Of a stretch of DNA of 63,738 nt, positions 11,091 to 12,455 are shown piece after piece. Under the pieces are notes generated by a model. The model was given only the letters and a program-made list of their open reading frames with translations, did no database searches and was not told where the DNA came from. The first letter of the stretch is position 1, and each line of letters begins with the position of its first letter. A program made the translations under genes and the position numbers. The stretch lies in NCBI GenBank assembly GCA_016926755.1, contig JAFGNZ010000382.1, positions 1-63,738 of the forward strand. Reading direction: 5' to 3'. The stretch comes from Myxococcaceae bacterium. Its GTDB lineage: Bacteria > Myxococcota > Myxococcia > Myxococcales > Myxococcaceae.

Positions 11091-12455
11091 CTACTTCGCC
11101 TTCAGCTCGGCGAGCTTCTTCTCGAGGGCCTCGACCTGGCGCTTGGAGACCTGCGCCTCGGGCAGCGACCTCGCGTGGGCGAGCGCCTCCTCCAGCGTCT
11201 TCACGGCGGCCTCCTTCTCCCCGCGAGCCACCTGGATGGCCGAGCGATCCGAGAGGACTCGCAGCCGCCGGGCCCCCTGCACCTTGGAGAGGGCCCGATC
11301 GCTGGCGGCGAGCGCGTCATCCAGCCGCCCCAGCATCCGGTAGAGGTTGGCCAGCCGGGCGGGCGGGTTGTAGTCCCCGGGCAGCTCTCGCTCGCTCTGC
11401 TCGATGGCGGGCACGACGCGCATCGGATCGCCCAGCACCATCGAAGCCGACATGCGGTGCGAGTCGAAGACGGTGCGAGCCTCCGGGTTGGGCGCCTTGG
11501 CGGCCTCGCCCTCGAGGAACGTGAGCCACTCGTGGGCGAGCGCCTTCGTCCCGGCCTCGTCTCCGGAGACGTCCCTCGCCTCCACCATCGCCTCGTACAG
11601 GCCGGAGCGATCATCCGCGGGCATGTCGATGGGCGGAGGTGCCAGGACTTCCCGGCCCGTGGCCTCCAACGCGCCCAGCAGCTCCTTGCTCGCGGGGTTC
11701 TCCGGAGGCATCGAGAGGGCGCAGAAGAGGCCCACGGTCGTCGCGTTCGCCAGGGAGGGCGAGCGGGGCACGCGCGGCAGCTCCTCCACGGCCTTGCGCG
11801 CACACGCCTCGTGCTGCTTCGCGCCCCACAGGGCGACCAGCAGCGACTCCAGCGTGCGGCCGCGGCGGGACCAGTCGGCGGGAGCCTGCGCGAGCGCCTG
11901 AGCAAAGGCCTCGGCCGCCTCGGCCGGCTTGCCCGCGCCATAGAGCGCATCTCCCCGCGCCAGCGCCGCCTCGGCGCCCTGGCCATCACCGCGCCAGGCG
12001 CGCTCTCCATCCTCGAAGAGCTTCTCGAGCTGCGCCACGGTGGCGCTGCCGGCGAAGCGCACGAGGGCCTTCTCCTCCTTCGGATCAATGATGAAGAAGG
12101 TGGGCCAGTTCTCGACGGGGTACTTCTCCTGGAAGAGGGCGTTCTTCGGAAGGTCGGTGTTGATCTCGAGCCAGACGAACCGTCCGGCGTGCCGCGCGAG
12201 CGCCTTGTCCGTGAAGACGTAGGCCCGCATCGAGCGGCAGGTGTGTCACCACGGGGCCCAGGTATCGACGAAGAGGGGAACCCCCTTCGCCCGAGCCTCC
12301 GCGAGCGCGCGGGGGTAGTCATCCTCGATGAACGGCAGGGGGGCTCCGTCATGAGCGGCGGCCTGCGCTTCGGGCGCCTGGGTGCGCGAGGCGGTGCAGG
12401 CCAGGAGCCCCACGACGAGCAGGCTGGCAAGGGAGGTACGCATGGCGGACACCAT
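11091..12455 (-). CDS. Thioredoxin-like lipoprotein with in-frame TGA in the CxxC site (selenoprotein candidate)
   Basis: Read with TGA 12248-12246 as selenocysteine, this is a continuous 454-residue protein; without it, it breaks into a 69-residue and a 379-residue piece in the same frame. The N-terminus MRTSLASLLVVGLLAC is a lipoprotein signal (Cys20). Residues of about 60-130 form a thioredoxin fold: FVDTWAPW, then Sec-HTC, then RSMRAYVF, later the cis-Pro region WPTFFIIDP. This matches W-C-x-x-C-x-x-M-x-x-x-V-F of DsbD-gamma/thioredoxin-7 type domains, with the first Cys replaced by TGA. The rest is TPR-like helices. Predicted role: thiol-disulfide redox at the cell envelope. ATG 12455 has GGGGGGA 7 bases upstream; ATG 12443 is the alternative. 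A point mutation TGC to TGA remains possible. Confidence 0.72.
12225..12248 (-). promoter_or_regulatory. Possible minimal bacterial SECIS element after the TGA
   Basis: Downstream of the TGA the transcript can form CCGC (12237-12234) paired with GCGG (12228-12225) around loop UCGAU, starting 9 bases after the TGA. A G in the apical loop and a short GC stem within 10-25 bases of UGA are what bacterial SelB elements show. The stem is short, so this is only suggestive. Confidence 0.35.

What the first reader, a model, noticed from the sequence alone, without database searches (positions are those of the whole stretch)
11091..12455. Candidate selenoprotein: TGA replaces the first Cys of a thioredoxin CxxC in a myxobacterial lipoprotein
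Two pieces of one frame (a lipoprotein start ending in TWAPW, and a downstream domain beginning HTCRSM) join exactly through one TGA at 12248-12246. The result reads WAPW-Sec-HTC-RSM, matching W-C-x-x-C-x-x-M of DsbD-gamma-type thioredoxin folds. TGA sitting precisely in the redox Cys position is the classical selenoprotein signature. Frame and codon bias continue on both sides and the next Cys is preserved, which is not expected of a random stop. A short GC stem-loop follows the TGA. I do not know of this protein being reported as a selenoprotein.
Basis: partly seen in the sequence, partly recalled or inferred. Interest (0 to 1): 0.95.

Follow-up and report, generated by a model that had tools for sequence, protein, structure and literature searches.

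The report
Selenoprotein with an unusually distant recoding hairpin
A myxobacterial gene carries one UGA stop codon exactly where relatives encode the first active-site cysteine, in a genome with the full selenocysteine machinery, so it likely makes a secreted selenium-containing thioredoxin, and the RNA signal predicted to recode the UGA sits nearly twice as far downstream as the published limit.

Summary
One frame (window 12455-11091, minus) joins through TGA 12248-12246 into W-A-P-W-U-H-T-C. The genome has SelA, SelB, SelD (itself with a Sec codon) and tRNA-Sec. TGA sits at the same codon in 24 genomes of four families; the other orthologues read have TGC/TGT. In the six Sec genes tested, both sides of the TGA are under purifying selection. 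NCBI-named orthologues (Hyalangium gracile, H. rubrum, Anaeromyxobacter sp. K and Fw109-5) are held as proteins that start at the Met after this site. A short GC stem-loop next to the UGA is intact in 14 of 24 Sec genes and does not fit the SECIS model. All 22 distinct Sec tails fold as two hairpins: a bridging one, then an 8-9 bp hairpin with a GUU-type loop about 65 nt after UGA. The published bacterial SECIS model allows 16-37 nt; none of the 24 has a conforming hairpin there, while SelD of this genome does (33 nt). One of 34 Cys tails keeps the fold. Sec and Cys were exchanged at least five times. Caveat: a 2006 survey counted two unidentified "thioredoxins" in Anaeromyxobacter dehalogenans; one may be this protein. 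Sec insertion and hairpin function are untested.

The parts
11091..12455 (-). Whole reading frame, UGA read as Sec: thioredoxin-TPR protein, 454 aa (450 if the second ATG at 12443 is the start)
   Evidence: homologue starts
12396..12398 (-). Cys20, predicted lipidation site (GLLAC) after a predicted signal peptide
   Evidence: read by eye; a Cys at the matching place in the six Sec genes printed; no predictor run
12246..12248 (-). In-frame TGA, predicted Sec70, first position of the UxxC motif
   Evidence: same codon is TGA in 24 genomes, TGC/TGT in the other orthologues read
12237..12239 (-). Cys73, second residue of UxxC
12018..12326 (-). Thioredoxin-like domain (residues 44-146; PF13899 match at 44-125, PF00085 at 59-146)
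11094..11987 (-). TPR superhelix (residues 157-454)
12190..12239 (-). Hairpin 1, predicted bridging stem-loop 7-56 nt after the UGA; exact pairing shifts between families
12170..12188 (-). Hairpin 2, GCCGGAC-G-GUU-C-GUCUGGC, predicted SelB-binding part of the SECIS, loop 65 nt after the UGA

Best explanation
This is one reading frame with a single UGA at the first active-site position of a predicted secreted thioredoxin-TPR protein, in a genome that carries SelA, SelB, SelD and tRNA-Sec, and it is predicted to be a selenoprotein in which that machinery would insert selenocysteine to form a U-x-x-C redox centre. Shown by calls: the frame, the same-codon TGA in 24 genomes, TGY in the Cys orthologues read, purifying selection on both sides in six Sec genes, the four machinery genes, a synonymous-site dip after the TGA in those Sec genes and not in Cys genes, and a predicted two-hairpin fold in each of 22 distinct Sec tails. 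Inferred: SelB binds the GUU loop of hairpin 2; hairpin 1 folds up the spacer so that this loop, 65 nt away in sequence, comes near the decoding ribosome. Inferred: the protein is exported, anchored as a lipoprotein in the own family, accepts electrons from a DsbD-type membrane reductase, and reduces or isomerises disulfides of clients held by its TPR superhelix. Sec would give faster exchange and better recovery from over-oxidation than Cys.
For: Frame. Machinery: tRNA-Sec 72.4 bits with TCA anticodon, SelB 308 bits with SelB winged helices, SelA 577 bits, SelD 385 bits with its own Sec codon LANCAGUAAK. TGA means stop elsewhere: selB itself ends in TGA. Same-codon TGA in 6 genomes of the own family and in 18 of 18 further TGA-bearing homologues at 43-50% identity. 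dN/dS below 1 on both sides in 15 of 15 pairs. The six Sec genomes of the family have SelA, tRNA-Sec and Sec-type SelD, while same-genus G036 has no SelA or tRNA-Sec above cut-off, no TGA in SelD and the Cys form of this protein. Databank: 66 of 120 listed homologues are 370-385 aa and start at the Met right after the UGA site, the other 54 are longer with WCH[TS]C; around the Anaeromyxobacter member 99 and 21 of 120. RNA: synonymous difference in the 28 codons after TGA 0.239 against 0.448 gene mean in the six Sec genes, 0.427 against 0.411 in Cys genes (120 of 644 Cys pairs sampled). Hairpin 2: 99.4% of cells paired in 22 Sec tails, five cells changed on both sides, 0 of 500 shuffles reach the covariation score; 73.5% in 34 Cys tails. 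Both hairpins in 22 of 22 Sec tails, 1 of 34 Cys tails, 11.8% of 4400 codon-resampled tails. SelD of this genome has a G-GUC-C loop at 33 nt. DsbD-type candidate donor in the genome.
Against: Hairpin 2 is outside the 16-37 nt spacing of the published model, and my scan for contiguous hairpins meeting that model found none in the 24 Sec genes. With the six close genes alone there was no covariation (0 pairs changed on both sides). On 22 tails, two other measures do not stand out: two pairs changed on both sides is reached by 21 of 500 shuffles, further pair types by 469 of 500, and shuffles ignore relatedness. The RNAalifold consensus of the Sec set has hairpin 2, the tip of hairpin 1 and a 5-bp near helix, not the bridging base of hairpin 1, whose register drifts between families. 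The independent-pairs test of Sec against intact hairpin 2 had 4 pairs, in favour, p 0.125. SelB was searched for in the own genome only, and no machinery gene outside the own family. Nothing shows the protein is made; selenium, donor, client and location are inferred.
Confidence: 0.93

Rival explanations
1. The gene is a broken or split gene: the TGA is a real stop and only the 379-aa piece from Met76 is made.
For: Public protein records take this view: proteins starting at the Met after the TGA.
Against: Same codon is TGA in 24 genomes in four families; the part upstream stays under purifying selection and the U-x-T-C stretch before Met76 is kept; no Shine-Dalgarno-like stretch is seen by eye before Met76; Sec genes show extra synonymous constraint after the TGA.
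Confidence: 0.03
2. The UGA is read through by an ordinary near-cognate tRNA (Trp, Cys, Arg) without selenium.
For: Low-level UGA read-through is known in bacteria (recalled).
Against: The site is the redox Cys position, the own-family Sec genomes have Sec machinery, and an RNA fold follows in Sec genes and in few Cys genes.
Confidence: 0.02
3. It is a selenoprotein, but a nearer structure (hairpin 1, tip about 31 nt after the UGA, or the short stem-loop at 12 nt) is the SelB-binding element, and hairpin 2 is accessory.
For: The tip of hairpin 1 falls within 16-37 nt; a bridging hairpin is predicted in 22 of 22 Sec tails; GUC and GA of its tip are invariant in the 22 tails. The short stem is fully paired in 14 of 24, and RNAalifold puts a near 5-bp helix in the consensus.
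Against: No contiguous hairpin in the 16-37 nt range has G in the first two loop positions in the 24 Sec genes; the short stem fails in 10 of 24 and is too near; the register of hairpin 1 drifts. Hairpin 2 has a GU-type loop closed like that of SelD and is paired in 99.4% of cells.
Confidence: 0.2

Closest known systems
Sec-containing thioredoxin family (PF00085, UxxC) of the prokaryotic selenoproteome catalogue (PMC13188914 Table 1; PMC1794560)
   Same: Thioredoxin fold, UxxC motif, Sec in place of the first active-site Cys. PMC1794560 lists 'thioredoxin (2)' for Anaeromyxobacter dehalogenans without identifiers in the passages seen; one may be this family.
   Different: Here a predicted exported protein with a large C-terminal TPR domain; best Pfam hit is PF13899, with PF00085 weaker but above its cut-off; noncanonical SECIS.
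Trx7/PDZ selenoprotein NF041199 (PMC13188914 Table 1; given as Thioredoxin_7 in PMC9312934)
   Same: Thioredoxin_7-type domain fused to a second domain, with one Sec.
   Different: CxxU, not UxxC; PDZ, not TPR; NF041199 is not among the matches.
Thiol:disulfide interchange selenoprotein (PF13098, UxxC) and DsbD gamma domain
   Same: Related fold and the likely redox chemistry.
   Different: No DsbD membrane-domain match; NF001419 scores 32 bits against a cut-off of 330.
Canonical bacterial SECIS (model in PMC13188914 Fig. 2 legend; SelD of this genome)
   Same: Stable hairpin with a small loop that has G first and U second.
   Different: Spacing 65 nt instead of 16-37, with another predicted hairpin in between.

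Membership tests
Bacterial selenoprotein | In-frame UGA aligned with Cys of homologues | tested here: met
   24 genomes TGA, other orthologues read TGY at the same codon
Bacterial selenoprotein | Sec machinery (SelA, SelB, SelD, tRNA-Sec) in the genome | tested here: met
   for the own genome; SelA, SelD and tRNA-Sec also in the five other Sec genomes of the family; SelB not searched there; nothing searched outside the family
Bacterial selenoprotein | Selenium actually incorporated | not testable with these tools
   needs 75Se labelling or mass spectrometry
Canonical bacterial SECIS | Apical loop 16-37 nt after UGA | tested here: not met
   no contiguous hairpin meeting the model in that range in 24 Sec genes
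Canonical bacterial SECIS | G in the first two loop positions, upper stem 4-16 bp, energy at most -7.5 kcal/mol | tested here: met
   met by hairpin 2 in 24 of 24 Sec genes, loop at 64-65 nt
Thioredoxin_7 (PF13899) | Pfam gathering score | tested here: met
   45.1 bits against 27
DsbD (NF001419) | Curated cut-off | tested here: not met
   32 of 330 bits
Lipoprotein | Signal peptide and lipobox Cys | tested here: inconclusive
   GLLAC at residues 16-20, read by eye; absent in the Anaeromyxobacter member; no predictor run
A. dehalogenans 'thioredoxin (2)' of PMC1794560 | Identity with one of the two counted proteins | tested here: inconclusive
   In G108 and G109 one of 12 PF00085 matches each has an in-frame TGA, and it is this protein; the paper's identifiers were not in the passages seen

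The most novel reading that the evidence does not exclude
Myxobacteria use a second class of bacterial SECIS: a two-hairpin element in which a bridging hairpin brings a G-GUU-C SelB-binding hairpin, 65 nt from the UGA, to the ribosome, alongside a canonical 33-nt SECIS in selD of the same genome. It drives a selenoprotein family of exported thioredoxin-TPR proteins spread over at least four myxobacterial families, including aerobic predators, that annotation pipelines truncate and that has switched between Sec and Cys at least five times.
Probability: 0.7. Interest if true: 0.8.

Novelty: new variant of a known kind. Interest (0 to 1): 0.72.

Why it matters
UGA recoding in bacteria is described as needing a SECIS hairpin right behind the codon. 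A natural element with its loop at 65 nt, kept across four families and found beside a canonical SelD element in the same genome, would show how far that rule stretches and by what trick, and would let SECIS predictors find selenoproteins they now skip. It also adds a selenoprotein to soil myxobacteria such as Hyalangium (aerobic, recalled), where a 2026 review expects few (PMC13188914, section 10), and gives close Sec/Cys sister pairs in which the benefit of selenium can be measured.

Tried and rejected
Formate dehydrogenase as the reason for keeping Sec in this genome: TIGR01553 gave at best 90.8 bits, no stop inside the matches; other Fdh models were not run. A hit with a TGA (L021) proved to be an ordinary thioredoxin whose TGA lies outside its coding part. 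The two-TGA hit in G043 (L079) was a DsbD-type protein whose TGAs lie past its end. Covariation on six close genes was uninformative until the 18 distant ones were added. The Foldseek rows shown are TPR proteins, and of the 50 VIA rows shown one is a thioredoxin, 2lst. Literature: searches for selenoprotein or selenocysteine with myxobacteria, Myxococcota, Myxococcales, Myxococcus, Anaeromyxobacter, and with tetratricopeptide plus thioredoxin, and three broader ones, showed no report of this protein in the rows listed except the possible 2006 count; only the open PMC library was searched. Seen: PMC13188914 outline, passages, sections 5, 10 and 7 (parts 1-2 of 3); passages only of PMC9312934, PMC1794560, PMC1088965, PMC8659212, PMC1914089, PMC2702500; the rest as listings.

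Rows dropped before counts: L072 (partial); L069 and L071 (distant), but kept among the 34 Cys tails; identical tails were merged (24 to 22 Sec, 44 to 34 Cys), identical proteins too. The 16 SelD genes were the own one plus 15 picked because one search flagged a TGA. The match listings were cut, so 24 genomes is a lower bound.

Full report
Observation. The minus-strand frame 12455-11091 has exactly one stop before its end, TGA at 12248-12246, and reads M...GLLAC...TWAPW-U-HTCRSMRAYVF.... Pfam finds a Thioredoxin_7 domain at residues 44-125 and TPRs after it; the AlphaFold2 model (mean pLDDT 85.3, pTM 0.81, residues 1-36 below 50) shows a thioredoxin-like domain followed by a TPR superhelix from about residue 157. 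Confidence around the active site is lower (residues 61-80: block means 75 and 62).

Machinery. The genome (9.59 Mb, 409 contigs, 100% complete) has tRNA-Sec (72.4 bits, cut-off 47; ARAGORN anticodon TCA), SelB (308 bits, cut-off 242; SelB winged-helix domains), SelA (577 bits) and SelD (385 bits), and SelD itself is of the Sec type, LANCAGUAAK. selB ends in TGA, so UGA is an ordinary stop elsewhere.

Comparative evidence. Of the orthologues read at DNA level, six genomes of the own family carry TGA at this very codon (G000, G040, G042, G002, G051, G044; 100 to 53% identity) and the others TGC or TGT. A class-wide search of 147 genomes (145 with some match) added 18 with an internal TGA, at 43-50% identity, in three further families; all 18 have it at the same codon, as W-[AT]-P-W-U-[HPK]-T-C. 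Contig lengths and names tie G113 to Anaeromyxobacter sp. Fw109-5 and G110 to Anaeromyxobacter oryzae. G002 is a single-contig genome, and independent assemblies agree, which speaks against a sequencing error. dN/dS is below 1 up- and downstream of the TGA in all 15 pairs of the six family genes. Neighbours are conserved: the upstream GTPase matches in 35 of 50 loci and the downstream metallophosphatase in 32 by 100 residues or more, with short flanks; both flank the Sec genes L018, L027 and L028 and the Cys gene L029, so there Sec and Cys forms are orthologues at one locus. L039 and L075 did not show the GTPase in the flank held.

Co-loss. SelA is over the cut-off in 88 of 96 family genomes and tRNA-Sec in 88 of 96, the latter with a borderline hit such as G050 at 47.6 bits. 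The six Sec genomes have both, and Sec-type SelD. G036, of the same genus, has only a 23-bit SelA remnant, no tRNA-Sec above the cut-off, a SelD without TGA, and the Cys form of this protein (L030). Many Cys-form genomes keep the machinery, so the machinery alone does not predict the Sec form.

Annotation. Of the 120 listed homologues (2630 in all), 66 are 370-385 aa and start at the Met right after the UGA site, among them the window's own ORF, Hyalangium gracile and H. rubrum; 54 are longer, with WCH[TS]C. Around the Anaeromyxobacter member it is 99 short and 21 full of 120 listed (217 in all), including Anaeromyxobacter sp. K and Fw109-5, named hypothetical. The DNA of most short ones was not seen, so a TGA there is inferred.

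The recoding signal. In the six family Sec genes the 28 codons after the TGA show about half the synonymous difference of the gene mean (0.239 against 0.448; tenth lowest of 482 windows, most of the lower ones overlapping it); Cys genes show none of this (0.427 against 0.411, 120 of 644 pairs sampled). The short CCGC..GCGG stem next to the TGA is fully paired in 14 of 24 Sec genes, with its loop 12 nt after the UGA. In the range of the published model (16-37 nt, G in the first two loop positions; PMC13188914 section 5) my scan for contiguous hairpins found none in the 24 Sec genes. All 24 have an 8-9 bp hairpin with a GUU loop, closed by G-C or A-U or widened to AGUUC, starting 64-65 nt after the UGA. 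In 22 distinct Sec tails it is paired in 99.4% of cells, with changes on both sides at two pairs (five cells); 0 of 500 shuffles reach the covariation score or that number of cells, 21 reach two such pairs, 469 the number of pair types. In 34 Cys tails 73.5% of cells are paired. In L149 and L150 the codon that is Arg in most relatives is Gln, which puts A at the loop-closing position, and the Phe codon is TTT, which keeps the pair; in L074 the same A stands opposite C and the loop widens. A second, bridging hairpin fills the gap in single-sequence folds. Both together are in 22 of 22 Sec tails, 1 of 34 Cys tails and 11.8% of 4400 tails with codons resampled at fixed protein; the rows are related, so these are not independent counts. 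RNAalifold gives -22.6 kcal/mol for the Sec set and -2.7 for the Cys set, but its Sec consensus has hairpin 2, the tip of hairpin 1 and a near helix, without the bridging base. In the 16 SelD genes read, picked for their TGA, the minimum-energy fold has a GUC (once GUG) loop at 33 nt in 12. So one SelB would seem to serve a canonical and a distant element. That SelB binds the distant hairpin, and that the first hairpin shortens the path, are inferences.

Evolution. On the 56-row tree (23 Sec) the label needs five changes, also when only supported branches count; on the 37-row family tree four, and a single Sec clade is rejected, though long branches are present. The intact hairpin 2 in Cys genes L035 and L036, near the Sec gene L039, suggests recent Sec-to-Cys change in that group. 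The direction of each change is not resolved.

Mechanism. The likely work is thiol-disulfide exchange outside the cytoplasm, with U70 as attacking and C73 as resolving residue, a DsbD-type reductase (474 aa, DsbD_TM plus Thioredoxin_7) as possible electron source, and the TPR superhelix as client holder. None of this was tested.

Known or new. The 2026 catalogue of 119 families has Sec thioredoxins and a CxxU Trx7/PDZ protein but no thioredoxin-TPR entry; NCBIfam 20.0 has no model above its cut-off. The 2006 survey lists 'thioredoxin (2)' for A. dehalogenans, and in G108 and G109, single-contig genomes of the Anaeromyxobacter group, this protein is the one of 12 PF00085 matches each with an in-frame TGA, so an Anaeromyxobacter member may have been counted then. 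The protein is thus a new or overlooked member of a known kind; the distant two-hairpin SECIS, if confirmed, is the new variant.

Noticed in passing
L023:1531 (G000:C263): SelD of this genome is itself a predicted Sec protein with a canonical SECIS-like loop 33 nt after the UGA.
   Followed up: yes
G036 (same genus, 2 contigs): No SelA or tRNA-Sec above cut-off, no TGA in SelD, Cys form of the thioredoxin: looks like a clean loss of the Sec trait.
   Followed up: partly
window 22088-23968 (-): Fusion of a DCC1-like thiol-disulfide oxidoreductase domain with lipase maturation factor domains.
   Followed up: no
window 25542-30026 (+): 1494-aa ORF with fn3, CBM25 and CBM20 starch-binding domains.
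   Followed up: no
G060, G069, G071, G072: Two adjacent copies of the Cys form stand side by side in these genomes.
   Followed up: no
genome G000: No formate dehydrogenase match of the TIGR01553 type above cut-off or with an internal stop, so what keeps the Sec machinery in this organism besides SelD and this protein is open.
   Followed up: partly
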